Origin: Magnetovibrio blakemorei
GTDB lineage: Bacteria > Pseudomonadota > Alphaproteobacteria > Rhodospirillales > Magnetovibrionaceae
NCBI RefSeq assembly: GCF_001746755.1
Contig: NZ_MCGG01000067.1
Span: 1-64,000, forward strand
Length of the DNA: 64,000 nucleotides
Direction of reading: 5' to 3'
The notes under the pieces were generated by a model that did no database searches, was not told where the DNA came from, and saw only the letters and a list, made by a program, of their open reading frames with translations. A program made the translations under genes and the position numbers. Shown here piece by piece: positions 49,157 through 60,868 of the stretch (the first letter of the stretch is position 1; each line of letters opens with the position of its first letter).

Positions 49157-49339
49157 GGCAGGTACTTTCTTTAAAGGGGGTGTTTGAGAATCAATTGGGT
49201 GATGGCGACAATTTAACCGCTGCCGCTCCAATTTGAAATCACTGTGTTGAGGAATGCATTCGGTAGTTTTCACAGAAGCTTGGAAGAATGGGGGGGGGCC
49301 ACGTAATCGTAGCGCGCAGTCACATACGAATATTCCCGT

Positions 49340-49367
49340 TAATCGCATAATGTATATTATGGAAAAT
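49340..49367 (+). other. dif: Chromosomal dif site / attL of the prophage
   Basis: XerC arm TAATCGCATAA (49340-49350), centre TGTATA (49351-49356) and XerD arm TTATGGAAAAT (49357-49367). The CGCATAA half and the TGTATA centre equal the E. coli dif sequence, and the XerD arm differs at two positions. XerCD acts here on chromosome dimers. The 17 bases from 49351 recur at 60807, marking the left boundary of the prophage. Confidence 0.85.
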
Positions 49368-49445
49368 CGGCTTAAGATTTTCATTTCAAAGGCTTGGCGC
49401 GCTTTCACACACCATCTAGTGATCTTCGCCCCCACACCTACGTAA
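49368..49445 (+). other. Alternative 3' exon-like end of the phage regulator gene (used in the circular form)
   Basis: Reading in frame through the 17-bp core (YIMEN), the left end of the prophage encodes 25 residues, [20 protein letters not shown] plus APTPT, then TAA at 49443-49445. In the excised circle these codons would join the regulator starting at 60335. In the integrated state they are cut off from their start codon. Confidence 0.75.
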
Positions 49446-49491
49446 GCCCGTAGGTTGACGGCATTGGTCATACAATGCCCATTTCTCCCCT

Positions 49492-49932
49492 ATGGCACTG
49501 GAAACTTTCATGGTTGCGTTACCCCCACCCGACAAAATCGGCATGGCAAACTACCTTGAAAAGCTCGCTCATACTTTGCGCTTTCAAGCCGAAAATGACG
49601 CGAAAAGAGTCCTCGACAACGCCAACGTCAACCGCCACCGCGACAAGCTCAAAGACGCCCGCGCCGTGCTCAGGGCGCGCATGTGGCAAGGGCTTGATCG
49701 TCACCGCGCCATCTTGCAAACCGAACAGGAAACAGGCATCCCTCGCGACGTGCTGGAAAAATGGGCCAACTTGGAAGCCGCCGATATCACCCGGCAAAAA
49801 CGTGATCGAGCGATCATGCAAAAATGCGCGACAGGCTGGACCAACCCCCAGCTTGCCACGCATTTCAACGTCTCAGAAACGCACATCGCCCGCATTATCG
49901 CAAAAATGCGCGCCACAGCAAAAAGACCATGA
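49492..49932 (+). CDS. Phage HTH protein (second regulator candidate)
   Basis: The 146-residue basic protein has a C-terminal helix-turn-helix (GWTNPQLATHFNVSETHIARIIAKMRATAKRP) and an N-terminal helical region (NRHRDKLKDARAVLRARMWQGLDRHRAI). In the circular phage it lies 46 bases downstream of the regulator and on the same strand, so the two could form one plus-strand unit. The start could also be the ATG at 49510, which follows GGAAA. It converges on the last minus-strand gene, overlapping it by 38 bases. Confidence 0.7.
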   Translation: MALETFMVALPPPDKIGMANYLEKLAHTLRFQAENDAKRVLDNANVNRHRDKLKDARAVLRARMWQGLDRHRAILQTEQETGIPRDVLEKWANLEAADITRQKRDRAIMQKCATGWTNPQLATHFNVSETHIARIIAKMRATAKRP

Positions 49933-50140
49933 CCAACCCCACCACCCATGGAGTGTATTTTTTGATTGCATCTTCCCGCGCCCATGCGCTTTCGATTTCA
50001 TCAATCCATGACTGGTCAATGATTTCCGCGCCATTTTCAGAACCAGACGAAAACCACGCCGGAACAGACCAGTCCCATTGACTTGCGTCAAAAGCCGTGG
50101 TTTTGAGCCAGTCGGGAACATAGTCCGTCCAAGTCGACAT
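49895..50140 (-). CDS. Small phage membrane protein
   Basis: The 81-residue protein is acidic and Trp-rich in the first 60 residues (MSTWTDYVPDWLKTTAF ... IDEIESAWAREDAIKKY) and ends in one membrane helix (PWVVGLVMVFLLWRAFLR). It is the last gene of the minus-strand series. The topology resembles the small virion-membrane proteins of PM2. Specific role unknown. Confidence 0.7.
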   Translation of the reverse strand: MSTWTDYVPDWLKTTAFDASQWDWSVPAWFSSGSENGAEIIDQSWIDEIESAWAREDAIKKYTPWVVGLVMVFLLWRAFLR

Positions 50141-50144
50141 GATC

Positions 50145-50261
50145 TTAACCCTTCGCCTTCACCACACGCCCGCCCTTGGCGTAGCGATAACCCTTTTTGA
50201 GTTTGGACGTGCCCTTTTTCAAGCCCACCCGCGACTTTGATTTTTTACGCCGTACAGCCAT
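50145..50261 (-). CDS. Tiny highly basic phage protein (38 residues)
   Basis: An ATG at 50261 opens a 38-codon frame with the sequence MAVRRKKSKSRVGLKKGTSK followed by LKKGYRYAKGGRVVKAKG. Almost half of its residues are Lys or Arg. It follows the neighbouring small gene closely on the same strand. It recalls small DNA-condensing or virion-internal proteins, but the role is inferred from charge and place only. Confidence 0.65.
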   Translation of the reverse strand: MAVRRKKSKSRVGLKKGTSKLKKGYRYAKGGRVVKAKG

Positions 50262-50265
50262 AACC

Positions 50266-50418
50266 TCACCCCTTGACCTTGACGGGAACGCCGTCAACAT
50301 ATTTCCAGCCCTTCACCAAAAGGCCGCTCTTGCCGTTGCGATAGGGATTTTCACCCGTCGCACCGCCACCCTTACGCGCCGCAAAAACCTGCTCACGACG
50401 GCTTAAAATCTTGCTCAT
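50266..50418 (-). CDS. Small basic phage protein (50 residues)
   Basis: ATG at 50418 to TGA at 50266: MSKILSRREQVFAARKGGGA, then TGENPYRNGKSGLLVKGWKY and VDGVPVKVKG. It overlaps the stop of the holin-like gene by 4 bases and ends 5 bases before the 38-residue gene. Basic, Gly-rich, with no membrane helix. A virion or DNA-associated protein is possible; unrecognised. Confidence 0.65.
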   Translation of the reverse strand: MSKILSRREQVFAARKGGGATGENPYRNGKSGLLVKGWKYVDGVPVKVKG

Positions 50419-50849
50419 GATTTGCCCCCAAATTTCAAAAGCGCCGCCTTGGCAATGTCGCCCATGTGCGGAGCCGCAAAGTAAAACCCTAGAATTAACA
50501 TCATCGCGCCATTCATCGCCCCGGCGCGCTCCCCAATGACGCTAGAAGCCAACTGCAAATTGACCGGGTTGACCTCCCAAATCGCCACCAAATCAAGCGC
50601 CATGCTGGTCAAATATTGCAGCAACCAAACCGCCGTAATAATCAGCGCCAACAAGCGCCGCGCCAAACTTTGCCCTTGGGTTGAAGCCATCCACTCAACC
50701 ACCATCTTGCGCGCCTCAGAGCGATCCTTTGCCGCATCCCCGGCCTTTTCTTCGTCGGTATACACCAACGCATCTAGGCCACGGGTCACACCGGACACAA
50801 CGCCCTGCAAAGCCGCTTCCGTGCCGAAGATTTTACCAAAAAAACCCAT
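50415..50849 (-). CDS. Holin-like protein of the GTA three-helix type
   Basis: The 144-residue protein begins MGFFGKIFGTEAALQGVVSGVTRGLDALVYTDEEKA. It has RSEARKMVVEWMASTQGQSLARRLLALIITAVWLLQYL and a second or third helix near the C-terminus (AGAMNGAMMLILGFYFAAPH). This order is that of the gene-transfer-agent-type holin family (GTA_holin_3TM). It would form inner-membrane holes at lysis. The start overlaps the preceding stop as TAATG. Confidence 0.75.
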   Translation of the reverse strand: MGFFGKIFGTEAALQGVVSGVTRGLDALVYTDEEKAGDAAKDRSEARKMVVEWMASTQGQSLARRLLALIITAVWLLQYLTSMALDLVAIWEVNPVNLQLASSVIGERAGAMNGAMMLILGFYFAAPHMGDIAKAALLKFGGKS

Positions 50850-50983
50850 TAGATTTCCTTGCCCGCCTTGATTTCCAGACGCAACAGACGACGATCAAAC
50901 TTCCACAAGGCGAAGGCAAGCAACACCGTCGCGGCATCGCCACCCATGCCCAACACCTCGCGAACAGCGTTAAACAATTCCAT
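50849..50983 (-). CDS. Tiny phage membrane protein (44 residues)
   Basis: ATG at 50983: MELFNAVREVLGMGGDAATV, then LLAFALWKFDRRLLRLEIKAGKEI. One membrane helix and a basic tail. It is coupled on both sides (TGATG at the start, TAATG at the end). A place between hydrolase and holin suggests a lysis accessory or spanin-like part. Confidence 0.65.
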   Translation of the reverse strand: MELFNAVREVLGMGGDAATVLLAFALWKFDRRLLRLEIKAGKEI

Positions 50984-51159
50984 CACGCGCCCCTTTTCTT
51001 TAACCAGCGCCAACCCAACCACGCCGCCACGCCCGCAAACAAAATCCACTTCACTTGCGCCGAAATCAATTCGGGCGTTGTTTCGCCATCCTCAGCGCGA
51101 TTGTTGAACCATTCCCACGCCACCACACCCGACAAAGCCCACAACAAAATATTGACCAT
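50983..51159 (-). CDS. Small two-helix phage membrane protein (58 residues)
   Basis: ATG at 51159 begins MVNILLWALSGVVAWEWFNN, followed by RAEDGETTPELISAQ and a second helix VKWILFAGVAAWLGWRWLKK. Two helices with an acidic loop. The stop overlaps the next ATG (TGATG). It sits in the putative lysis cassette. Role not determined. Confidence 0.65.
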   Translation of the reverse strand: MVNILLWALSGVVAWEWFNNRAEDGETTPELISAQVKWILFAGVAAWLGWRWLKKRGA

Positions 51160-51618
51160 CTAAGCCACCCCGAAACGATGCTGGCCAACGACCGCCGTTT
51201 CATTAAAAGCGCTGATCCATGTGGGCGTGACAATGCGCGGATTGTAATAATGGGTTGCCCCGCCCGTCACATCGGGCAGATCGCCCGCAATCGCCAAGCC
51301 CGCGATTTCATAAGCCAGATCAAAAAGCGCATCGCCCTTATTCGGCTCTTTGGTGCGGATCAACGCCGCGTTGGGGTCGTTTTGGTTCCATGCGGTAAAT
51401 TGTGCTTTTTTCATGCATACGGAAATGACGCTATCGCCCCACCAGCCGCCCAAGGTTGCGCGCCGCATCACCACGTTGGCAACGGCTTGCATTCCCGCGT
51501 AGCCTTCGCCCCGCGCCTCACCATAAGCCGTCCTGGCTAACACCAACTGAGCCTCATTCATCCGCCACCGCCACAGGGCAAATAGCCCAACTCCAAAGGT
51601 TAAAAATAGCCATCGCAT
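51160..51618 (-). CDS. SleB-like cell wall hydrolase with N-terminal membrane anchor
   Basis: The 152-residue protein has a membrane helix at residues 2-18 (RWLFLTFGVGLFALWRW), then a Hydrolase_2 (SleB) domain with the conserved ARTAYGEARGEGYAGMQAVANVVMRRA and GATHYYNP. The catalytic Glu lies in YGEARGE. The family cleaves peptidoglycan. Here it may serve host lysis or genome entry through the wall. Start coupled to the preceding stop (TGATG). Confidence 0.85.
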   Translation of the reverse strand: MRWLFLTFGVGLFALWRWRMNEAQLVLARTAYGEARGEGYAGMQAVANVVMRRATLGGWWGDSVISVCMKKAQFTAWNQNDPNAALIRTKEPNKGDALFDLAYEIAGLAIAGDLPDVTGGATHYYNPRIVTPTWISAFNETAVVGQHRFGVA

Positions 51619-51863
51619 CACACCACCAACGGACGCAAGGCGGCAATTTGCGCCTCCACGTCCTGAATGAAGGCAAGCGCCACCGCGTCACCTAAAACCG
51701 CCTCACGTTGTCGCCTATCACTGATTGACGCCTCTAAGGCCAAGATAGCCGCCTCAGCATCACGCCGGGCTTGCCCCGCCGCCCAAGCCACTTCCTCAGC
51801 TTGACGAACAGCAATCTCCGCCGCGCTCAAATCAACCAATTTGCCATTAACGCTTTTTTGCAT
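51618..51863 (-). CDS. Small coiled-coil phage protein
   Basis: The 81-residue Ala- and Glu-rich protein has a predicted heptad-like helix (LSAAEIAVRQAEEVAWAAGQARRDAEAAILALEASISDRRQRE). There is no membrane segment. Its stop overlaps the hydrolase start and its own start overlaps the upstream stop. It may be a chaperone or an attachment of the spike-like protein upstream; inference from position only. Confidence 0.65.
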   Translation of the reverse strand: MQKSVNGKLVDLSAAEIAVRQAEEVAWAAGQARRDAEAAILALEASISDRRQREAVLGDAVALAFIQDVEAQIAALRPLVV

Positions 51864-52408
51864 CACAGCACCCCGTAAATAGAAAATTCACCAGACACCA
51901 AACCAGCCGTTAAAAGAAAACTTACGGCGTTAATCTCCGCACCTGTGCCAACTCCACCCGATCCTTGATTGCGAACCATATGAGCAGCACGCCAATGCGT
52001 GCCAGACCAATGACAGCTTTTAAAATACACAGGATTTGAAGGGTTTTTTAACTCTAAGGTAAATTCCCCAGAGTTTCCCGCAGTTGTTCCTAAACCCTCA
52101 CCTACAATATTCATGAGAATTTGACCCGCGCTTGCCGCTCCTCCATCAGCACCCCCCGCCCCATCCTCCCTATCACTTCTTGTCTTGTAAAAATGAGAGG
52201 ATAAAAAAGTTGCCCCTCCATCACTAGATAGCTTGAAAAGCAAAGACACATTGTCAGAACTCGTAACAATGTCATGCCCCTCAAAAATAAAGTTTTTGTA
52301 AGCAGTATCAATAATTCCATCTGTAAAATCGACAGAGGAAACACCCGCCACAACTTGACGATTAATTAATTTGATTGATCCGCCACCGCTTGAGCTAAAT
52401 CCGGTCAT
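51863..52408 (-). CDS. Phage beta-rich structural protein, spike or receptor-binding candidate
   Basis: The 181-residue Gly/Ser-rich protein has the pattern VSSVDFTDGIIDTAYKNFIFEGHDIVTSSDNVSLLFKLSSDGGATFLSS, a repeated motif in phage host-contact proteins. There is no membrane helix. Base composition is more AT-rich than in its neighbours (runs such as aaaataaagtttttgtaa), which may reflect horizontal exchange of a host-range gene. GAGG lies 8 bases before the ATG. Confidence 0.7.
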   Translation of the reverse strand: MTGFSSSGGGSIKLINRQVVAGVSSVDFTDGIIDTAYKNFIFEGHDIVTSSDNVSLLFKLSSDGGATFLSSHFYKTRSDREDGAGGADGGAASAGQILMNIVGEGLGTTAGNSGEFTLELKNPSNPVYFKSCHWSGTHWRAAHMVRNQGSGGVGTGAEINAVSFLLTAGLVSGEFSIYGVL

Positions 52409-52411
52409 GAC

Positions 52412-52996
52412 TTAACCCTCTTCTAAAACACGCACGTCTTGCCCCGCCGTGCCGCTTATCGCATAAACCGCCGCCGAAACACCCGACAAGGTGAACGCGC
52501 CGCCATTGGCCGCAACCTCTAGACCATCGGCCACCGTCACACCCGCACCGCCCAAATAAATGGGTTGCGCGCCTAAATTTTGGATGGTTACAGACTTGCG
52601 CGCCGCATTGGCAGCAACAACAAGACCAGCGGCAACCCCTACGACCACAGCCGCCGTTGAATAACTTGACGCCAAGCCAAGATCCACCGTACCCGATATT
52701 GAAATCGTCCCCGACGCCTGAAAACGACCATCGTCAATCGCGCCCTCACCGACACCAATGTTGAACGTGACGGCACCGCCCGAATTGTTTACAACGCGAA
52801 TCGAACTGAAGCCCTTAGGCACCGGAATACCGACGCCAACAGGCACCAAATACGGACTGTAGCCGTCAACACCGACATCAAGCTCCGTTGCGCCCGTGCA
52901 ATCGAGAATGCGGAAAAAATGCCCCTCGAAATTCAGCGTAATTCCCGCGCCATTGGCAAGCGTATAAGGCTCGATTTTATAAGGTTCACCACTCAT
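52412..52996 (-). CDS. Phage beta-rich structural protein
   Basis: The 194-residue Gly/Ala/Val-rich protein has alternating beta-prone stretches (GITLNFEGHFFRILDCTGATELDVGVDGYSPYLVPVGVGIPVPKGFSSIRVVNNSGGAVTFNIGVG) and no charges in its C-terminal half. It resembles receptor-binding or vertex proteins of small phages but is not assigned. GAGG seven bases upstream decides the start at 52996; an upstream in-frame start lies inside the previous gene. Confidence 0.7.
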   Translation of the reverse strand: MSGEPYKIEPYTLANGAGITLNFEGHFFRILDCTGATELDVGVDGYSPYLVPVGVGIPVPKGFSSIRVVNNSGGAVTFNIGVGEGAIDDGRFQASGTISISGTVDLGLASSYSTAAVVVGVAAGLVVAANAARKSVTIQNLGAQPIYLGGAGVTVADGLEVAANGGAFTLSGVSAAVYAISGTAGQDVRVLEEG

Positions 52997-53000
52997 CTTT

Positions 53001-53417
53001 TTACCTCTTAAACAAAATGCCCAAAGCCACCACCGACGCACCGACCAAAATCAAAGCCTTCAAAGCCAACATTCCAATTTCTTTTTGATCGCTCTCAACC
53101 TTTTCGGCCAAAATCTTGTTGTTTTCCGTGAACGCTTGGGAAAAGGCATCGGTCACATTTTCGACAGCCTTCGCCGCACCCTCCAAGCCCGCCTCAAGAA
53201 CATCTTTCGCCCCGGCAATCGCGCCGTAATCCGTAAAAGACACATCACCCGAACCCGACACCGCCAAACCGTCACCGCCTACCGTTGCGCGCTGGTCATA
53301 TTGATCCGAACTCGTTGAACTTGAGCTTGACGATTGCGACGACGAAGAGCCGCCATGCACCGCCACCCCATAGCGCCCGAACCGTTCCCGAAACCGGATA
53401 TCTGCCGGGTGCGCCAT
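53001..53417 (-). CDS. Phage membrane protein with Ser-rich stretch
   Basis: The 138-residue protein has a Ser tract (SSSSQSSSSSSTSS near residue 25), an Ala-rich helix (AKDVLEAGLEGAAKAVENVTDAFSQAF) and a C-terminal membrane helix (LALKALILVGASVVALGILFKR). The topology, with the bulk outside and a single anchor, fits an internal-membrane protein of the virion. Start overlaps the preceding stop (TAATG). Confidence 0.7.
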   Translation of the reverse strand: MAHPADIRFRERFGRYGVAVHGGSSSSQSSSSSSTSSDQYDQRATVGGDGLAVSGSGDVSFTDYGAIAGAKDVLEAGLEGAAKAVENVTDAFSQAFTENNKILAEKVESDQKEIGMLALKALILVGASVVALGILFKR

Positions 53418-53839
53418 TAGACAACGCCCTTTTTAAACACCACTTCCGTCTTGCGAAAACCAGCGTCCCGCAAAGAGCCGATAAACCGCGATCCGCCCGC
53501 AACGTGGGTACGCATGGACGCGCAACCACGGGACCGGGCGAAATTCTCCAAGGCCGGAAGCGTGAGCCGTGCCGCTGATTTATGATTGCGGAACGCCTCG
53601 CCCGCTTGGATCACCAATTCACGGGTGCGCCCAAAATCATCAACCCACAACACCACATAGCCCAACGCATCCGCCCCCAAAGAAACGAGATACAACGTCG
53701 CGTGCCCCTCGATAACTTCCCGGCGCAAATCGTCCAGCGTGTAAGTGGGATCAACACCCGCCGCACCCTGCAACAAAATCGCGGCCTGTTCATTCCAAGC
53801 TACGGATTTCAAATTTACGTTTTGCGTCTGCTCAACCAT
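53417..53839 (-). CDS. GNAT-like fold phage protein
   Basis: The 140-residue soluble protein has the order of a GNAT acetyltransferase: YTLDDLRREVIEGHATLYLVSLGADALGYVVLWVDDFGRTRELVIQ, then helix SAARLTLPALENFARSRGCASMRTHVAG and the terminal LRDAGFRKTEVVFKK. The acetyl-CoA loop (Q/RxxGxG/A) is not clear, so enzymatic activity is uncertain. It lies among structural genes. An adapted non-catalytic structural role is possible. Confidence 0.6.
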   Translation of the reverse strand: MVEQTQNVNLKSVAWNEQAAILLQGAAGVDPTYTLDDLRREVIEGHATLYLVSLGADALGYVVLWVDDFGRTRELVIQAGEAFRNHKSAARLTLPALENFARSRGCASMRTHVAGGSRFIGSLRDAGFRKTEVVFKKGVV

Positions 53840-54033
53840 GCGAAAGCCACCAATGCCAAAGCCACAACAACCACGACCCCCATTGAGCCGATACCCGAAC
53901 CGCCCGTGATCACATCGCCAAACGTGGCGTTTGCGCTCATTGTGGCGGCACTGTCCGAAAACGCATCAGAGGGGGCGGCATCGCCACCCTGCAATGATGT
54001 TCCGCCCCCAAGCGCCTCCGTAAACGGGTCCAT
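53815..54033 (-). CDS. Small phage membrane protein (72 residues)
   Basis: An acidic, Gly/Ala-rich N-terminal half (MDPFTEALGGGTSLQGGDAA ...) is followed by one membrane helix (GSMGVVVVVALALVAFAWLS) and a basic end RRKT. This is the topology of PM2-type small virion membrane proteins. It overlaps the GNAT-like gene by 25 bases. Confidence 0.7.
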   Translation of the reverse strand: MDPFTEALGGGTSLQGGDAAPSDAFSDSAATMSANATFGDVITGGSGIGSMGVVVVVALALVAFAWLSRRKT

Positions 54034-54036
54034 AGA

Positions 54037-54354
54037 TCAACGCCCCTTCATCAAAGCGATAACGGCAATGATCAAACCCGCCGCCGCGATCCACATGCCG
54101 ATTTTCTGATAATCGGTAGAGGCAAAACTATCGCCCATACTTTGCGCGCCACCCGCACCACTGCCAAACGTGGCTTGCCCAGACGTAGGCACCAAGCCCG
54201 CCGCCATAGACCGCTTGTAAATATCCAAATCGGCAATTTTGGAACCCCAATCGGTGAAGATATCCAAAATGCCGTTTAGAGACCCCGTTCCCCAAGTCGC
54301 AGAACCGGAGCCACCCCCCGAAGTCGAAGTGCCAGTTCCAAATAACCAACCCAT
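54037..54354 (-). CDS. Small phage membrane protein (105 residues)
   Basis: Gly/Ser-rich N-terminus (MGWLFGTGTSTSGGGSGSAT), a middle amphipathic region (LNGILDIFTDWGSKIADLDIYKRS) and a C-terminal membrane helix (IGMWIAAAGLIIAVIALMKGR). AAGGGG eight bases upstream supports the ATG at 54354. It follows the capsid gene directly and is probably a virion membrane protein. Confidence 0.7.
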   Translation of the reverse strand: MGWLFGTGTSTSGGGSGSATWGTGSLNGILDIFTDWGSKIADLDIYKRSMAAGLVPTSGQATFGSGAGGAQSMGDSFASTDYQKIGMWIAAAGLIIAVIALMKGR

Positions 54355-54420
54355 CACATATACCCCTTAAAAATTGAGAGGCTGGCACGCCCTGCCCCAC
54401 AACGTGCCAGCCGATGAAGA

Positions 54421-55278
54421 TTAGTCGGGTTGCCCCAACACCTCCTCATGGAGAACCGTGTACGCCGCCGCAGCCGCGTTAAAGTCCAATTTCAAGCGGA
54501 AACCATTTGCGCCCTGTGTCGGGACAATACCGCTGTAGCGATTGCCCGAAAAATCAAGGTGCGTATAGCCCGCCTGAGGGGTACGGCTTACGGTTTGGAA
54601 GCTTTCGATATCCGCGATCAAATCCGACAAGCCCGTTGTCACTTCACGGATTTTCGTGTCATTGAGCAGCACTTCAAAGCTGTCAATTGCCGCCGAACTG
54701 ATATGCAGCGCCTTAACGCCGCGACCGGTTTCCGGACCACGAATAGGCAAGTCGTGAATTTCAACACGACCAGCCGCCGACACGTTGCCATAAGACGTGG
54801 AACGCACGCGCAAAATCTGACCCGGAGGACGAGACACCAAACCACCCGCGCCCCATTGCAAATTCGCGAAAGCCCGCAATTCAGGAGCTACGGAAGCCGC
54901 CGCGATCTTGACTTCAAGGGTCACGTTCAACAGGCCCTTTGTGCCCAGCGCAAAACGCTGCTCTTCAATCGGGTCCATGAATTCAGGCCGAATGAAGGGG
55001 ATCACGAAATAACCGGCAACCATGGGGAAGCCGTAATATTGATTGAGCATCACCAGTTCCGCACCGGAAATATCAATCATAGGCTCACCATTGACCTTGA
55101 GCTTGATATTGTCGATATGCGTCCCGAAATCGGCAACGGCGCACAGCGTAGACGCGGTGTGCTTCAATTCCAAAATCAGGTAGCGATACGTTGAACCATC
55201 GGCAGGTAAGGACAAGTTAGCAACTTGACCGACGCCGACAGCGTTGAACGACTGCAATTCACGGGTAACGTCACGCAT
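54421..55278 (-). CDS. Major capsid protein, PM2 P2-like (double jelly roll)
   Basis: The 285-residue protein is close in length to PM2 P2 (269). From what I recall of P2, shared blocks are an N-terminal VANLSLPADGSTYRYLILEL, the RPE followed by QRFALGTKGLLNVTLEVKI, and IHDLPIRGPETGRGVKALHISSAAIDSFEVLLNDTKIREV (P2 has FALGTVGL and DLP...AIHI...DAVEF..DGTKWRDL). Such proteins form trimeric double-jelly-roll capsomers on a lipid membrane. It is beta-rich with no membrane helix. The fold is inferred from this family resemblance. Confidence 0.82.
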   Translation of the reverse strand: MRDVTRELQSFNAVGVGQVANLSLPADGSTYRYLILELKHTASTLCAVADFGTHIDNIKLKVNGEPMIDISGAELVMLNQYYGFPMVAGYFVIPFIRPEFMDPIEEQRFALGTKGLLNVTLEVKIAAASVAPELRAFANLQWGAGGLVSRPPGQILRVRSTSYGNVSAAGRVEIHDLPIRGPETGRGVKALHISSAAIDSFEVLLNDTKIREVTTGLSDLIADIESFQTVSRTPQAGYTHLDFSGNRYSGIVPTQGANGFRLKLDFNAAAAAYTVLHEEVLGQPD

Positions 55279-55294
55279 TGGACCGCCCCCCCCC

Positions 55295-55429
55295 TTAAGA
55301 AATTACGTCGTAGATTTCGGACAACACGGGGATATCGTTTTCATTTCCCCACTTGACCAACAACACCAGCAGACCCACCCCGATCATCACCGGAACGGAA
55401 GCCTTTAACAAATCCGTCACCTTTTTCAT
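55295..55429 (-). CDS. Tiny phage membrane protein (44 residues)
   Basis: ATG at 55429: MKKVTDLLKASVPVMIGVGL, then LVLLVKWGNENDIPVLSEIYDVIS. One membrane helix. It immediately precedes the capsid gene and follows the terminator-like hairpin. A longer frame from 55495 reads through that hairpin and is rejected. Confidence 0.65.
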   Translation of the reverse strand: MKKVTDLLKASVPVMIGVGLLVLLVKWGNENDIPVLSEIYDVIS

Positions 55430-55442
55430 TCCAACAAACCCC

Positions 55443-55488
55443 AAAAAAAGAAAAACCCCAGTCACGCCGCCCGCGTGAACCTGAGGTT
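55443..55488 (-). terminator. Terminator-like hairpin ahead of the virion genes
   Basis: On the minus strand, stem AACCTCAGGTTCACGC pairs with GCGTGACTGGGGTT (one mismatch and a 2-base bulge), followed by TTTTTCTTTTTTT. It lies between the ATPase stop and the capsid operon, 14 bases before the first ATG, leaving no room for a downstream promoter. It may act as an attenuator. Confidence 0.65.
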
Positions 55489-55520
55489 TATCCAATTCCC
55501 TTTTTTTGGGAGTTTCATCG

Positions 55521-55540
55521 CTCCGTATACGTATACGGAG
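55521..55540. repeat. Perfect 20-bp palindrome
   Basis: CTCCGTATACGTATACGGAG lies immediately after the ATPase stop codon. A shorter version, TTCCGTATACGGAA, is at 56737-56750. Its place upstream of the virion genes suggests an operator or binding site. Confidence 0.7.
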
Positions 55541-56188
55541 CTAGGTAGGGGGGATGATCCGCAATTCGCCGTTTTCATCCCTGTAGACGTGATGGAAGCG
55601 CTCAAGCTCTTGGATCATTTGCCCCGCGCCCTGCACTTGCATGGCCCGTTCCGCCGCCTCGATATCGTTGGAAAATGACAGGGCAAACGATGCCACCCGG
55701 TCAAGGTTTCCGCGTGCCCTTGGCGACACTTCCGCGGGACGTTGGGCCAAGTACACAACGTCAATCCCACGCTTGCCGCCCTTGGACATAATGCGGCCAA
55801 AGCCGGAATGTTTTGGCTTAACGTGCAATCCAAAACTGTCCTGAGCTTCATCGACAACAAACATCACCTTGCGTTCGTTTTCGCCCAGCTTATACGGCTC
55901 TTGGAGCGCCTGAACGATCCGCGAGACCTGATGCAATTCGGCCTCTTCATGCATTTCCTGAGGGACATAGATCAAACGGAAATTGCCGTCCCAACAATCT
56001 TCCAAGACGCGGAGAAAATCGGCCAGATCAACGGCACGATAAAACCCTTTCAAATCGTCAAATTGCTCTTCCGGATCAAACACGATAACGCGATCCATAC
56101 CCCTAACCATATTCTTGACATATGTCGTTTTGCCGCTTTGGGATTTTCCATATACGGCCATACGCAACCCGCTTCTAGTTCCCGACAT
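55541..56188 (-). CDS. Genome-packaging ATPase (FtsK/HerA type, PM2 P9-like)
   Basis: The 215-residue protein has Walker A YGKSQSGKTT near residue 15, Walker B MFVVDEAQD near 120 and a later sensor region GIDVVYLAQRPAEVSPRARGNLD. This is the layout of the A32/P9 packaging ATPases of membrane-containing viruses. Inovirus Zot is related but has a C-terminal membrane helix, absent here. ATG at 56188 lies six bases from AAGGGG; an ATG at 56194 is also possible. It overlaps the preceding stop by 14 bases. Confidence 0.85.
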   Translation of the reverse strand: MSGTRSGLRMAVYGKSQSGKTTYVKNMVRGMDRVIVFDPEEQFDDLKGFYRAVDLADFLRVLEDCWDGNFRLIYVPQEMHEEAELHQVSRIVQALQEPYKLGENERKVMFVVDEAQDSFGLHVKPKHSGFGRIMSKGGKRGIDVVYLAQRPAEVSPRARGNLDRVASFALSFSNDIEAAERAMQVQGAGQMIQELERFHHVYRDENGELRIIPPT

Positions 56189-56696
56189 GCTCATCCCCTT
56201 CGCTTGAGGTTTCCGCAACAGTCGCAGAAACCCGCGCTTTTCGCTTTTCCATTTTCTCGTTAAGTACGCCCTTGACCACCGGACCAAAACCGATGAACAA
56301 AATAATCGCATCCTCAAGAGCCTGAGACCCCAGACGTTCCAAAAGAGGAGCAATCGCACTATCAGCGAGACGCCGATAGACCACTTCCACGGAAGCCCTG
56401 AATTCTTCATCGCCCGCGTCAATTTGAAGAGACTTATAGCCCCGCTTGCGCCCGATCCACGCGCACGTTTTGACGACATGGTTATGAAACTTATCTTCCG
56501 TATAGAAGCGCTTGACATCATCCGTTGTAATTCGGCCCTGAGGCTCGTCGTTTTCATTCGCCGCCTCGCCACCCTCAAAAACGACTTCACCATCAACCAC
56601 CCGTGCCCCAAATAACGGACTTTGCGGCACGTCCTCAGCTTCACCAGCTAAGGGACCATCCGTTTCCACTTCCGCCTTTTTGTTCATTCCGAACAT
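56175..56696 (-). CDS. Hypothetical phage protein (173 residues)
   Basis: The acidic N-terminal third (AEVETDGPLAGEAEDVP) is followed by a helical domain (ITTDDVKRFYTEDKFHNHVVKTCAWIGRKRGYKSLQIDAGDEEFRASVEVVYRRLADSAIAPLLERLGSQALEDAIILFIGFGPVVKGVL). One moderately hydrophobic helix near residue 130-150. AAGGGG six bases before the ATG at 56696 decides the start. Unrecognised; cotranscribed with the ATPase, possibly a packaging partner. Confidence 0.7.
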   Translation of the reverse strand: MFGMNKKAEVETDGPLAGEAEDVPQSPLFGARVVDGEVVFEGGEAANENDEPQGRITTDDVKRFYTEDKFHNHVVKTCAWIGRKRGYKSLQIDAGDEEFRASVEVVYRRLADSAIAPLLERLGSQALEDAIILFIGFGPVVKGVLNEKMEKRKARVSATVAETSSEGDEHVGN

Positions 56697-57006
56697 CGCT
56701 TGCCCCTTCGTTTGCGTTACGCGTTTCCGCCTTGGTTTCCGTATACGGAACTTGAGGCGCTTTTTGTTCCGGAATTTCCGGAACTGGCACCGTCTCATTG
56801 CGTATAGGCTCGAACATCGGCAAATCGCTTTCGTGCGATACGTCCGGATTGAACCGATGATGTTGCAGACACGTTTTTTCTTTGTGATTTACATAGAACC
56901 GCCCGTGTCCTTTTGTTTCACCTTGCCGAAAAACTTCAACACGCACCGTCTTGCCGTGCATGTAACATTCCGGACAAGGGACCGTGCCGTATGGTCCCGT
57001 CGCCAT
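56641..57006 (-). CDS. Phage zinc-finger-like protein
   Basis: The 121-residue protein has an N-terminal Cys/His module: VPCPECYMHGKTVRVEVF ... HGRFYVNHKEKTCLQHH, with two Cys in CPEC and a later Cys/His group, which may bind zinc. The C-terminal half is Glu/Pro-rich and unstructured. It overlaps Rep (TAATG) and the next gene by 56 bases. Function unknown. Confidence 0.65.
   Translation of the reverse strand: MATGPYGTVPCPECYMHGKTVRVEVFRQGETKGHGRFYVNHKEKTCLQHHRFNPDVSHESDLPMFEPIRNETVPVPEIPEQKAPQVPYTETKAETRNANEGASDVRNEQKGGSGNGWSLSW
56737..56750. repeat. 14-bp palindrome TTCCGTATACGGAA
   Basis: Shares the core TCCGTATACGGA with the 20-bp palindrome at 55521-55540. It lies inside the coding region of the zinc-finger-like gene. 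Confidence 0.55.
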
Positions 57007-58181
57007 TAAAACGGTACTCCCTCTCTCTGTTCGTCTATGAAAAATAGCCGCTTATCCGCCGCAAAATATTTGCGCTTGAACTGGACCGGATCACGGCTTG
57101 CAAAGGCGCTAAATTCATCCGCGATAACTTGCGCGAATTCGTGCGCCGCCTCCTCAGGAGTGTTGCCCATGGCGACGGCATAGCTCACGCACCATCCCAT
57201 CACGCCGTTGCGGTACATATCTTGAATATCTTCACGCCGCCCCTCGACAACACGCTTTCTATCCGCCTTCGCCATATACGGAACAAGAGCCGTGTTGACC
57301 TCTTCACGCAAAATGGCCCAAAGCGCATGATCTGGAACGCGTGTTACATTTTCGCCCGGTTCAGGTTGGCGCTTCATCATCCGCACGGCTTGACACGCGG
57401 AACCGAACAGCGCCGCGAATTTCACTTCCAAATCTTCAAACGTGGTGATTTTCCATTCTTTCAAATGGATCTTCCCGGCGCGCATTTCGACACGCCAAAT
57501 GGGTGGGCAATCGTCCTTTTCAAAGCCCCAAAGCGCATACCAATGCGAAGATACCTTGCGCGCCACTTCCCGCCGCTTGTCATAGATGATGGTTTGCCGC
57601 CCCGGCATCTTGCCGATGGTGACGCTATTGCTCATTCTGTTTGCGTATGAAACGACGAATTCAGAGCCGCCCAAGGGGATGCCCTCTTGATCATCACCGC
57701 GTACCAGCATTTGACTGTGTGAATGGCAAGAGACGAGCCCCACGTCCAACGTGAAGCCCTCAGCAACGAAATCAACGGCAAAATCCACCCGCGATATACT
57801 TTCGTCTATCACCTTGGCCCCAAAGGCCTCTAGCCGCCCATACAGCGCCGCCTTGGTTTCGTGATATCCGTTGACGGCTAATTGAGCGTTTGCGACGGAA
57901 ACACGAATATTCCACTCCCTAGGGTCCGGATTATCCTTAATAGTCCAGATTTCACCGTCCGGACCTGTATCAAAGCAAAAAGCATACCCACCAGAAGCGC
58001 CCGTTTTACCAATATGACCGTGCACGCCTTCAATAACCACATATTCAGGCTTTCCTTCCGACGTGGCTTTTGCCTTCGCATCGCGCATGAGAGCGCGAAC
58101 ACTTGAAGGCAAACACCCCATAAACGCCACGTCTAGGCTATCAATCCCTTTTCTCAGGACTCGATATTCCGATTGTTCCAT
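57006..58181 (-). CDS. Replication initiator, Rep_trans family
   Basis: The 391-residue protein has Rep_trans hallmarks: ISRVDFAVDF, VTIGKMPGRQTIIYDKRREV and WRVEMRAGKIHLKEW. This family of initiators serves rolling-circle plasmids and filamentous phages such as CTXphi (RstA). I do not see the HUH motif of the PM2 P12 type. It should nick and start replication of the circular phage genome. It lies upstream of the packaging genes in the same minus-strand series. Confidence 0.87.
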   Translation of the reverse strand: MEQSEYRVLRKGIDSLDVAFMGCLPSSVRALMRDAKAKATSEGKPEYVVIEGVHGHIGKTGASGGYAFCFDTGPDGEIWTIKDNPDPREWNIRVSVANAQLAVNGYHETKAALYGRLEAFGAKVIDESISRVDFAVDFVAEGFTLDVGLVSCHSHSQMLVRGDDQEGIPLGGSEFVVSYANRMSNSVTIGKMPGRQTIIYDKRREVARKVSSHWYALWGFEKDDCPPIWRVEMRAGKIHLKEWKITTFEDLEVKFAALFGSACQAVRMMKRQPEPGENVTRVPDHALWAILREEVNTALVPYMAKADRKRVVEGRREDIQDMYRNGVMGWCVSYAVAMGNTPEEAAHEFAQVIADEFSAFASRDPVQFKRKYFAADKRLFFIDEQREGVPF

Positions 58182-58231
58182 TAGTCTGTAATCCTAGAGG
58201 GGGGTGCTACATAGACCCCCGCTTAGTTCCG

Positions 58232-58447
58232 TCAATAAAAACGATCATCTTTCAATTGCTTCGCCAACTCTTCAACAAGCGCACCAATTGAACGCTTAAC
58301 CAGCGCCGTTTCACCGTTGTATGAAATCTTTTTGCAAACAGGCTTAGGACACGCCGTTCTGCTCAGTAAAAGCTCACCCGAAGTTATGCCATTGCGAACC
58401 GAAACCTTAACGCTCAACTCAAGATCATGATCTCTGTCATTGCTCAT
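58232..58447 (-). CDS. Small hypothetical phage protein (71 residues)
   Basis: MSNDRDHDLELSVKVSVRNG at the N-terminus, then a two-Cys stretch TACPKPVCKK, and a C-terminal helix (LVEELAKQLKDDRFY). Its start overlaps the preceding stop (ATGA). Unrecognised; early-region accessory. Confidence 0.6.
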   Translation of the reverse strand: MSNDRDHDLELSVKVSVRNGITSGELLLSRTACPKPVCKKISYNGETALVKRSIGALVEELAKQLKDDRFY

Positions 58448-58689
58448 TGGTCAAACTCCCAAGCCAAGCATTCCATGTAACTTGCCATCACTTCCGCACT
58501 CAAAAACACCGTGCCCGAAGCTGGCAAATAATCAGGGCGGCCCATACGAAGCAACGCGGCCAACGCCTTCTTTTTTGACGTTGAGGAACCCGAAAACATG
58601 ATGTTTCCGGCAACTTCAAAGGCGAAATACCAATGCCCCTTTTCCACCCTTTTTAACGTGATAATCGCCGCAACTTTAATTCCGCTCAT
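58444..58689 (-). CDS. Small hypothetical phage protein (81 residues)
   Basis: Beta-prone first half (IKVAAIITLKRVEKGHWYFAFEVAGNIMFSGSSTSKKKALAALLRMG) and a C-terminal helix (SAEVMASYMECLAWEFDQ). It is coupled by 4-base overlaps to both neighbours. Unrecognised. Confidence 0.6.
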   Translation of the reverse strand: MSGIKVAAIITLKRVEKGHWYFAFEVAGNIMFSGSSTSKKKALAALLRMGRPDYLPASGTVFLSAEVMASYMECLAWEFDQ

Positions 58690-58868
58690 GCCACCAACTC
58701 CAACTTGTCAAACTCAACACAATAGCCGCCATCATCCGCCGCAAAATCGTGACGCTCACACCATCCGCCAACGCGGAACCGACACCGCCCACAGCGCAGA
58801 GGCGAATTGCCACCGCCTGAAACCACGTCAAAATCACGATCCAATAACGGGGTGATATGGCGCACCAT
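58686..58868 (-). CDS. Small Cys-rich phage protein (60 residues)
   Basis: Contains CGRCRFRVGGWCERH and a later Cys (YCVEFD), a possible zinc-binding module. The ATG at 58868 overlaps the preceding stop (TGATG), which makes it more likely than the upstream frame start. Function unknown. Confidence 0.6.
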   Translation of the reverse strand: MVRHITPLLDRDFDVVSGGGNSPLRCGRCRFRVGGWCERHDFAADDGGYCVEFDKLELVA

Positions 58869-59062
58869 CACTTGACGATCCGCCCCGCCCACATCATCGC
58901 CTCATCAAGCCGCGCCATGGCTTCCGATACGGAGCGATGTACGTCATTGGCCTCAGCGCTCTTGCACTGTTCCGCCCGCTCCGCACCGATTTCAGAAACC
59001 AGCAACGCGATGCATTTGGCATAGTGCTTTGCCGTGTTGTATTTTTCCTCTTGCCTAGTCAT
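58868..59062 (-). CDS. Small helical phage protein (64 residues)
   Basis: Starts MTRQEEKYNTAKHYAKCIAL and continues as helix-rich LVSEIGAERAEQCKSAEANDVHRSVSEAMARLDEAMMWAG. Its start overlaps the upstream stop by 4 bases. Unrecognised. Confidence 0.6.
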   Translation of the reverse strand: MTRQEEKYNTAKHYAKCIALLVSEIGAERAEQCKSAEANDVHRSVSEAMARLDEAMMWAGRIVK

Positions 59063-59520
59063 GACCTAAGCCTCCTCATTTCAAAATTGTCAGGCAATCC
59101 GCCCATGCCATCCTGGTCATAAAAATCATCCCAGAAACGCCAAAAATTCTTGCTGTCAAACGCCCGCGCCGTATTCGACGCCCGCATGTAAAGCGTTGCC
59201 GGGAAATGCTTTGTGCAGGGCAAAAGCTCGACTTTGCAAAACACACCCAAAGGCGGATTTTTCCAGTAAGCCGATTGCGGAAATTCCCGAACCTTGAGCC
59301 AGAAATATTCATGCTCACGCTCACGAAAAACCGTCGCCAAATCGGCAATAAAATCAAACGTACCCTTGAGAGCGAAGTCCTGCCCCTGATACGTCCAAAG
59401 AACCATCCATTGTTTGACGGTTATCGGATCGCGCATTTTTCCCGTGTCCGCATCCAACAAAAAGCCGCCCGTTCCCTTGCGAGAACGGACGGAAGTTTGA
59501 GGAGTGCGAACAAAAGACAT
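59059..59520 (-). CDS. Hypothetical phage protein (153 residues)
   Basis: An aromatic-rich protein: ITVKQWMVLWTYQGQDFALKGTFDFIADLATVFREREHEYFWLKVREFPQSAYW ... SKNFWRFWDDFYDQDG. There is no membrane helix or recognised motif. It lies directly after the SSB-like gene with a 10-base spacer, so it is an early replication-region gene. Function unknown. Confidence 0.65.
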   Translation of the reverse strand: MSFVRTPQTSVRSRKGTGGFLLDADTGKMRDPITVKQWMVLWTYQGQDFALKGTFDFIADLATVFREREHEYFWLKVREFPQSAYWKNPPLGVFCKVELLPCTKHFPATLYMRASNTARAFDSKNFWRFWDDFYDQDGMGGLPDNFEMRRLRS

Positions 59521-59530
59521 TCAACGCGCC

Positions 59531-59974
59531 TTAGTAGGGGATGCTATCGTTATCAACGGACGAAGGCGACGGCGCACCGCCGAAGTCTTGCCCGCCGTTC
59601 CCGGCCTTCGGACGTGACCAGCGCAACGTGAAATTCGCGGGTTTGCCCTTGGGCGTGTCTTTGGGTTGCTCATCATCGGGAAACGCCGCCAAATAAATCG
59701 GCTTGTCGGTCATGTGAGGATGGTCGACGGTGATGGAGAAAAACGAGCCGCCCGCCTTGAGCTTTTTGACCCAACATTGACCAACCACGCCATATTGACC
59801 GGAACGGCTTTTCATCTTCATTTCGTAATCGGGCGACTTGACCGGATCGCGCTTTTCAGCAACCGGGATCAAATAGAAATCGCCAATAATGTTTCCGAAG
59901 TCGATTTCCCCCGCGTACACGGTGGGCTTGCCTTCAACATCACGGCGCAACACATATCCACATTCAATAGCCAT
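59531..59974 (-). CDS. DUF736 family protein with SSB-like C-terminal tail
   Basis: The 147-residue protein matches the DUF736 pattern: SPDYEMKMKSRSGQYGVVGQCWVKKLKAGGSFFSITVDHPHMTDKPIYLAAFPDD ... FTLRWSRP. The C-terminus is disordered and ends VDNDSIPY, close to the acidic tip DDDIPF of bacterial SSB proteins that recruits replication partners. It is the first gene of the minus-strand series and probably binds single-stranded DNA during phage replication. Confidence 0.75.
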   Translation of the reverse strand: MAIECGYVLRRDVEGKPTVYAGEIDFGNIIGDFYLIPVAEKRDPVKSPDYEMKMKSRSGQYGVVGQCWVKKLKAGGSFFSITVDHPHMTDKPIYLAAFPDDEQPKDTPKGKPANFTLRWSRPKAGNGGQDFGGAPSPSSVDNDSIPY

Positions 59975-60334
59975 AGCTGTTTTTCCAATTCTGTTAGCTG
60001 TTTTCGTTTCCTACGCGCTCCGCGCAGGGGCTGTTTTTTGCCGTTTTAAAAACGGGTTTGAAAGAGGGGGGAGAGGTTTTTCAGGCCTCTCCCCATTTTA
60101 GAAAGGGAAGCCATGGCAACCCGTTTCCAAAACACCCCGTTGTGAAACAGCCAGAAACACAGCGCGGGGCTAAAACTTTTTACACCTCATCTTGTGCCGT
60201 TAACCTTTCGTTAACCCCTTCCCTTGGGGGTGGCACACCATTCAGTTGTTAGCTGAAAGATGAAGCATACATCTAGCGATTGTCAACCGTTAACTTAAAG
60301 ATTAGATTTGAACTGCAAAAAAGGAGAACAGCAC
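59975..60334. promoter_or_regulatory. Divergent control region and candidate origin of the prophage
   Basis: A 360-bp gene-free stretch between the early minus-strand operon and the plus-strand regulator. It has nested inverted repeats: GGCTGTTT (60029-60036) with AAACAGCC (60145-60152), AAACGGGTT (60050-60058) with AACCCGTTT (60118-60126), and GGGGAGAGG (60068-60076) with CCTCTCCCC (60086-60094). GTTAAC sites lie at 60199, 60210 and 60289. It may hold both the switch and the Rep origin. Confidence 0.55.
60280..60308 (+). promoter_or_regulatory. Promoter of the phage regulator, with an overlapping operator
   Basis: TTGTCA (60280-60285), 17-base spacer, TAGATT (60303-60308). The spacer contains CCGTTAACTT (60287-60296), a copy of CCGTTAACCTT at 60197-60207, so a GTTAAC-binding repressor would block this promoter. 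On the other strand TTGACA overlaps the same spot. Confidence 0.5.
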
Positions 60335-60868
60335 ATGGCCCGCACCCGCCAAAACACCACCCGCTACATATCGTCTTTTGAGCATGGCCTTACCGTCGAA
60401 ATAGCTGGGAAAATCAAAGACTTTCCTTCTATTGGCGACTACATAGAGGCGTGCCTAGTGACGTGGCCCGGCGACTATAAAAGCCGCTCTGACGTAGCCG
60501 TTGCGCTGGGCATAACCCCTCAAAGTTTGTCTATGTGGATGAACGGCGTGCGCTTTCCAACAGACGAAAATATGGTAAAACTTGCTCACATCTTAGAAAC
60601 CGACGCCGACGCCGCACTAATGCACCTGAATATTTGGCGCACCCGTGGCGAAGCGCAAAATGCATATATTCGCATGGCTAAAAAGATAGGTGCCGTCGCC
60701 GCCGCCATCTTTGGCCTGTATATTTTGACCAATCCGAGCACCGCGCACGCCGCCCCGATTGCCCTAGAACAAATCGGGCACAGCCTAACATGGGCACGGG
60801 AAACAGTGTATATTATGGAAAATTACGTTATATATTTTATATCAATATGTTATGTGGATTATGTTTAA
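60335..60868 (+). CDS. Phage HTH regulator whose 3' end crosses attR
   Basis: In the integrated state it has 177 residues. An HTH-like region (SRSDVAVALGITPQSLSMWMNGVRFPTDENMVKLAHIL) is followed by a hydrophobic segment (IGAVAAAIFGLYILTNPSTA). From residue 158 the gene enters the dif core and its last 14 residues are host-encoded (YVIYFISICYVDYV). In the excised circle it would have 188 residues. AAGGAG eight bases before the ATG at 60335 decides the start. It is probably the lysogeny repressor or a related switch protein, perhaps DUF3693-like. Confidence 0.75.
   Translation: MARTRQNTTRYISSFEHGLTVEIAGKIKDFPSIGDYIEACLVTWPGDYKSRSDVAVALGITPQSLSMWMNGVRFPTDENMVKLAHILETDADAALMHLNIWRTRGEAQNAYIRMAKKIGAVAAAIFGLYILTNPSTAHAAPIALEQIGHSLTWARETVYIMENYVIYFISICYVDYV
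60796..60823 (+). other. attR of the prophage (hybrid dif site)
   Basis: Degenerate XerC arm ACGGGAAACAG (60796-60806), then TGTATATTATGGAAAAT (60807-60823), identical to the left core. The phage attP therefore has a poor XerC arm and a good XerD arm, so after integration only the left copy is a full dif. Confidence 0.82.

What the first reader, a model, noticed from the sequence alone, without database searches (positions are those of the whole stretch)
60335..60868. Integration swaps the C-terminus of the phage regulator
The regulator gene runs into the dif core in frame (TVYIMEN). In the lysogen it ends with 14 host-encoded residues; in the circle it would end with 25 phage-encoded residues beginning [13 protein letters not shown], read from 49368-49445. 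The protein would report whether the genome is integrated. A gene also sits 46 bases downstream (49492) only in the circular form. This could be an integration-dependent switch.
Basis: partly seen in the sequence, partly recalled or inferred. Interest (0 to 1): 0.78.

Follow-up and report, generated by a model that had tools for sequence, protein, structure and literature searches.

The report
Phage integration rewrites its regulator's tail
A small tailless virus inserted at a bacterium's chromosome-terminus (dif) site has its insertion point inside the end of its own regulator gene, so the regulator gets a virus-encoded tail when the virus is a free circle and an arbitrary host-encoded tail when it is inserted; related filamentous phages keep the virus-encoded tail in frame, which suggests that the free-circle form of the protein matters.

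Summary
A corticovirus-like prophage (49351-60823) sits at the host dif site. Its HTH regulator (60335-60868) reads in frame through the dif core (VYIMEN). It ends with 14 host residues in the lysogen; joining the attachment sites gives 25 phage residues ([25 protein letters not shown]) and puts an HTH gene (49492) 46 nt downstream. Alone this is weak evidence: a random frame stays open 25 codons about 30% of the time.

Relatives carry the weight. In Xanthomonas/Stenotrophomonas inovirus regulators of the same family (phrog_638), the gene meets the dif core in all three reading frames. The phage-side tail is conserved and in frame in 30 of 31 prophages with both junctions, despite at least 18 frame changes on the tree. 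Lysogen tails are arbitrary. All six free inovirus types read through dif have an in-frame basic tail, and the next gene overlaps or abuts its stop. Two other corticoviruses show the same layout; one relative does not.

So integration swaps the regulator's tail and detaches the next gene. That the two forms act differently is unproven, and the idea was published for phage RSS0 (PMC3816273), with XacF1 and BPs as precedents. New here: the corticovirus case and the evolutionary evidence.

The parts
49351..49367 (+). attL core and XerD arm (TGTATATTATGGAAAAT); with the host XerC arm at 49344-49350 (CGCATAA) it forms a complete dif
49368..49442 (+). phage-encoded codons for the circle-form tail [25 protein letters not shown]; stop 49443-49445
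49492..49932 (+). HTH gene (GerE/Mor-like C-terminus), first phage gene after attP, same strand as the regulator; start may be 49510
   Evidence: Pfam GerE 2.7e-5, Mor 4.1e-5; phrog_532/836 late activators; homologs at the same place in L023, L026, L157
51160..51621 (-). cell wall hydrolase (endolysin)
   Evidence: Pfam Hydrolase_2 3.6e-20
54421..55278 (-). [quoted passage not shown]
   Evidence: Pfam P2_N 1.2e-27, P2_C 4.7e-24
55541..56644 (-). ORF with P-loop ATPase, probably the packaging ATPase (true start probably inside this ORF)
   Evidence: Pfam Pox_A32 3.4e-5, other AAA matches
57006..58181 (-). replication initiation protein (Rep_trans-like)
   Evidence: Pfam Rep_trans 9.9e-5, below its cut-off
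60335..60868 (+). HTH regulator, lysogen form (177 aa); residues 158-163 VYIMEN overlap the dif core
   Evidence: Pfam HTH_3 3.1e-8; phrog_638 2.6e-16 over residues 47-163
60686..60751 (+). regulator hydrophobic segment and signal-peptidase-I-like motif (IGAVAAAIFGLYILTNP-STAHA|AP), just upstream of the dif-derived residues
   Evidence: hydropathy and motif by inspection, no topology predictor run
60807..60823 (+). attR core and XerD arm (TGTATATTATGGAAAAT), inside the regulator gene
60824..60868 (+). host-encoded 14-residue tail YVIYFISICYVDYV plus stop

Best explanation
A corticovirus-like temperate phage probably uses host XerCD to integrate at dif, with attP inside the 3' end of its HTH regulator gene. 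As a circle it encodes a 188-aa regulator (HTH, hydrophobic segment, linker, 25-residue basic amphipathic tail) and has an HTH, perhaps activator, gene just downstream on the same strand. Integration cuts between linker and tail: the regulator receives whatever the host dif neighbourhood encodes, and the tail and downstream gene move to the other prophage end, away from the regulator's promoter. Most likely the tail and the linkage to the next gene are needed only in the replicating state, and the regulator without that tail suffices for prophage maintenance. Integration is thus a one-step change of both protein form and operon, reset on excision. Shown from sequence: the swap, the two junctions, tail conservation and frame-keeping in related inoviruses, the linked gene in relatives. 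Inferred: XerCD use, co-transcription, membrane placement, and that the two forms differ in activity or stability.
For: Both junctions in the window; dif confirmed in relatives. Inovirus regulators of the same phrog_638 family: circle tail in frame in 30 of 31 two-junction prophages (29 of 30 distinct, permutation p about 1e-5), in all three core phases, with at least 18 phase changes on a tree built without the junction. Tail pN/pS 0.46 and 0.67, against 1.07/1.77 and 1.19/0.74 in shifted frames. Free phages XacF1/Cf1c, phiXv2, phiLf, Cf2, SHP2, SMA7 all have in-frame basic tails, with the next gene overlapping or 2 nt from the stop. phrog_34897 aligns with the XacF1 regulator in its first part and with the next gene in its last part, so it looks like a fusion of the two. 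Corticoviruses L023 and L157 repeat the layout, circle stop 5 nt before and 8 nt into the next HTH gene. Lysogen tails are arbitrary.
Against: No expression data, no sighting of the circle. The window's tail has no sequence relative, so selection on it is untested. Relative L025 (about 85-93% identical to L023 in matched blocks) has a regulator that stops before its attachment site. Exceptions in inoviruses: L107/L108 and L109 appear out of frame; L086 reads into the next gene instead. The junction can move as one cassette by recombination, so the 18 phase changes are not 18 independent compensations. Corticovirus stop-start spacing alone is only weakly beyond chance (0.13, 0.26, 0.31). pN/pS 0.67 for the second tail group is weak purifying selection.
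Confidence: 0.6

Rival explanations
1. Compact packing without a switch: attP sits at the 3' end of the regulator because that spot tolerates it. The full-length protein is wanted in the circle, but losing its tail on integration has no regulatory consequence.
For: Lysogen tails are arbitrary in length and sequence, so the tail is dispensable there. L025 does without the overlap. The circle tail would be conserved under this view too.
Against: Does not by itself explain why the overlap recurs in inoviruses and corticoviruses, or why the next gene is repeatedly linked to the regulator across attP.
Confidence: 0.27
2. BPs-type integration-dependent immunity: the circle tail is a degron, so the viral form is degraded and only the integrated form represses.
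For: Same logic and gene layout as mycobacteriophage BPs (PMC4557955). WC36-1 (L068) ends in LNAAV, like a known engineered ssrA-tag variant (own knowledge).
Against: The window tail ends APTPT; most others end RTGQ, RHGA, VKA, QYA: no ssrA-like end. The tails are long and basic.
Confidence: 0.08
3. Chance: an open frame running through dif into host DNA with no selection on either tail in this phage.
For: One 25-codon open frame is expected about 30% of the time; no close relative of this tail is available; the gap to the next gene is 46 nt.
Against: phrog_638 aligns through the dif-encoded residues; regulators of L023, L024, L027 and L157 also run into the core; inovirus relatives show selection.
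Confidence: 0.05

Closest known systems
Ralstonia filamentous phage RSS0, ORF13 (PMC3816273)
   Same: attP (dif) at the 3' end of an HTH regulator; integration changes 156 aa to 130 aa (26-residue C-terminal loss); the author proposes different functions before and after integration
   Different: Inovirus; integrated form shorter there, here a 14-residue host tail replaces 25 residues; its sequence was not in the collection, so homology was not tested
Xanthomonas phages XacF1/Cf1c (PMC4076744), phiXv2, phiLf, Cf2
   Same: attP inside the regulator ORF, same phrog_638 family (tested for XacF1), in-frame dif core, basic phage-encoded tail, next gene at the stop
   Different: Different virus realm; next gene is DUF3653-like, not the HTH gene; XacF1-type tails look like a second membrane segment
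Mycobacteriophage BPs integration-dependent immunity (PMC4557955)
   Same: attP in the repressor gene; integration changes the C-terminus; circle form longer
   Different: Own integrase gene; the viral form carries an ssrA-like degron, not seen here; regulator not compared by sequence; tested experimentally
Jorvik, NO16 and PM2 (Vinavirales) (PMC10589892, PMC9966536, PMC1950889)
   Same: PM2-type capsid, dif-like attachment sites, no predicted integrase in Jorvik; Jorvik gp1 (HTH) lies next to attP and is implicated in lysogeny
   Different: The core scan found no regulator ORF running through such a site in PM2, and no site at all in NO16 or YY at the pattern used; different replication and regulatory genes

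Membership tests
Integration-dependent immunity (BPs type) | attP lies inside the repressor/regulator ORF | tested here: met
Integration-dependent immunity (BPs type) | virus-encoded form carries an ssrA-like C-terminal degron | tested here: not met
   window tail ends APTPT
Integration-dependent immunity (BPs type) | phage integrase beside the repressor | tested here: not met
   no integrase match in the element ORFs scanned; small ORFs not all scanned
Integration-dependent immunity (BPs type) | integrated form represses, viral form does not | not testable with these tools
   needs a reporter assay
RSS0/XacF1-type dif-overlapping regulators (phrog_638) | sequence family with HTH and C-terminal hydrophobic region | tested here: met
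   phrog_638 2.6e-16, residues 47-163; hydrophobic segment; Pfam DUF3693 not detected in the window protein
RSS0/XacF1-type dif-overlapping regulators (phrog_638) | dif core read in frame at the C-terminus with a phage-encoded continuation | tested here: met
RSS0/XacF1-type dif-overlapping regulators (phrog_638) | circle tail under purifying selection | tested here: inconclusive
   shown for inovirus relatives; no close relative of the window tail
Vinavirales/corticovirus-like phage | PM2 P2-type double jelly-roll capsid protein | tested here: met
   Pfam P2_N 1.2e-27 and P2_C 4.7e-24
Vinavirales/corticovirus-like phage | circular dsDNA genome in a membrane-containing virion | not testable with these tools
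   only the integrated form is seen
XerCD-dif integrating element | flanked by dif-type sites at the single host dif | tested here: met
XerCD-dif integrating element | uses host XerC/XerD | not testable with these tools
   inferred from the site and from the lack of an integrase match

The most novel reading that the evidence does not exclude
The phage reports its integration state outside the cytoplasm: the regulator's hydrophobic segment plus AxA motif (STAHA|AP in the window; a similar motif by eye in about 18 of 26 relatives examined) acts as an internal signal sequence, so the dif-spanning C-terminus is cut off into the periplasm as a peptide whose basic amphipathic half exists only while the genome is a circle.
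Probability: 0.08. Interest if true: 0.85.

Novelty: new variant of a known kind. Interest (0 to 1): 0.6.

Why it matters
Integration-dependent regulation was shown for mycobacteriophages with their own integrase and only suggested for a few filamentous phages. The same gene layout at dif in two unrelated virus realms, with a phage-encoded tail conserved across all three core reading frames in inoviruses, suggests that phages borrowing host XerCD can sense integration simply by where attP lies. It makes the 2013 RSS0 hypothesis directly testable and would explain why these regulators have seemingly random C-termini in bacterial genomes.

Tried and rejected
tblastn of the regulator in INPHARED: no match. 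Capsid-profile scans: two already known loci in genome contigs, none in IMG/VR. Profile scan with the divergent regulators: no conserved stretch. RSS0 record JQ408219 not held. Same-genus search around L023/L025 gave no further capsid, so no close relative for a selection test on a corticovirus tail. Degron idea: no ssrA-like ends except WC36-1. Meaning of the host 14 residues: rejected, tails at 12 related dif sites are 0-40 aa. Tail net charge is higher in circle than lysogen forms (p 0.003, or 0.014 when short lysogen tails are dropped; rows related and hand-picked, so weak), hydrophobicity does not differ. Promoter/terminator scans near both junctions uninformative. Vibrio phages VCY and VALG8: no matching core at the pattern used. 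phiRs551: uses its own resolvase, not dif.

Full report
What is there. The window contains a prophage between two copies of TGTATATTATGGAAAAT, at 49351-49367 and 60807-60823. The left copy, with the host bases before it, matches CGCATAATGTATATTATGGAAAAT, found (up to one mismatch) in 12 of 18 genomes of the family and 9 of 10 good ones, in all five genera, once per genome except two copies in one genome: the dif site. The element encodes a PM2-type P2 capsid protein (Pfam P2_N 1.2e-27, P2_C 4.7e-24), a Rep_trans-like protein, a P-loop ATPase and a cell wall hydrolase, so it is corticovirus-like. No integrase was seen among the ORFs scanned.

The regulator. ORF 60335-60868 has an HTH (Pfam HTH_3 3.1e-8) and matches phrog_638 over residues 47-163 (2.6e-16), i.e. 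right through the dif-encoded VYIMEN. In the lysogen it ends YVIYFISICYVDYV, host DNA. Joining the two sites gives [25 protein letters not shown] with stop at 49443-49445 and an HTH gene at 49492. Every coordinate in the finding holds. Taken alone, an open frame of 25 codons is expected about 30% of the time, so the window cannot show that the tail matters.

Corticovirus relatives. L023 (G172) has dif-type sites at both ends; its regulator ends FNGIYYDK in the lysogen through a host stop and would continue LRSLTEYIRRLIYALKNNRLNVPVKA in the circle, with stop 5 nt before the next HTH gene. L157 (G774) ends PIYTLCD and would continue GFRLNLKSDRRHGPDLARFACLFRRFLQSIGFTCQYA, stop overlapping the next HTH gene by 8 nt. 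L024 (G123) carries the regulator at the dif beside the same host genes as in the window, reading the core in another frame, with a host tail. L026 (Magnetospira MAG) shows only the phage side; in the VYIMEN frame its tail stops 5 nt before the next HTH gene. The downstream HTH genes are alignable (21-28% identity). The spacing is only weakly beyond chance (0.13, 0.26, 0.31). L025 (G196), similar to L023 over most of the phage, is a counterexample: its regulator stops before the site.

Filamentous relatives. Homologs of the XacF1 regulator in IMG/VR reach the dif core at about residue 120, in all three reading frames. Where both junctions are present, the circle tail can be read. In 30 of 31 such prophages the conserved phage tail (..LTLLCALAAYHCWSLHRKRTG.. 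or ..WLARLLPRPLSLLRHGA) lies exactly in the frame in which the regulator enters the core (15, 10 and 5 cases in the three phases; permutation p about 1e-5 on distinct rows). A tree of the regulator without its junction needs 18 phase changes, so this is not one inherited frame, though the junction may move as a cassette. Tail pN/pS is 0.46 and 0.67 in frame. Lysogen tails in the same prophages are host-encoded and range from almost nothing to over 100 residues. The six free inovirus types read (XacF1/Cf1c, phiXv2, phiLf, Cf2, SHP2, SMA7) all have an in-frame basic tail, and in each the next gene overlaps or lies 2 nt from the stop. phrog_34897 matches the regulator in its first part and the next gene in its last part, so fused versions probably exist; L086 reads as one. 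Exceptions are L107/L108, L109 and L086.

Mechanism. Best-supported reading: the full-length circle form is the selected protein; integration removes its tail and separates the next gene from the regulator's promoter in one step. Inovirus data establish selection for the circle form; extension to the window phage is by family membership and layout. Which form represses better, whether membrane placement or proteolysis is involved, and whether the circle occurs in this strain are not known. Many family members have a hydrophobic segment followed by an AxA-type motif before the dif residues (by inspection), which would place the tail across the membrane; XacF1-type tails instead look like a second membrane segment.

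Known work. The idea was stated for RSS0 ORF13 (PMC3816273), and XacF1's authors noted that attP lies in ORF12 and may split it (PMC4076744). BPs is the tested precedent with a degron (PMC4557955); the degron criterion is not met here. In the papers searched I found no earlier report of the overlap in a corticovirus-like phage or of the three-frame conservation, but the library lacks many subscription papers.

Verdict. Observation confirmed; interpretation partly supported; a new variant of a known kind. Interest 0.6.

Noticed in passing
window 49440-49500: Stable hairpin (GGCATTG-GTCATA-CAATGCC, 49460-49479) between the circle-form stop and the HTH gene, z -2.7; no T run, so perhaps a translation control element or attenuator of the circle-form transcript.
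   Followed up: partly
window 49254-49445: In the lysogen the phage tail codons stay open in a 63-aa ORF with a host-encoded start ([15 protein letters not shown]...), so the tail could still be made as a host-phage fusion.
   Followed up: no
window 60335-60868 (segment MAKKIGAVAAAIFGLYILTNPSTAHA) and L023, L068, L071, L072, L074, L076: A methionine stands just before the signal-peptide-like segment of several regulators, so an internal start could give a separate secreted peptide.
   Followed up: no
L062 6427-6885: In XacF1 the Pfam DUF3693 domain covers residues 64-121 and so ends right where the dif core begins: the family model appears to stop at the attachment site.
   Followed up: partly
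L027 13916-14224: A lone regulator fragment ending VYIMDKPSG near a tyrosine recombinase gene in a same-family genome, perhaps a remnant or another dif element.
   Followed up: no
L101 10001-10427: The lysogen tail itself reads NWLLTLLCALAAYQC, i.e. apparently a remnant of an older phage tail beside the host dif.
   Followed up: no
L025 4260-14459: Phage similar to L023 but inserted in the opposite orientation, with a shortened regulator lacking the hydrophobic segment.
   Followed up: partly
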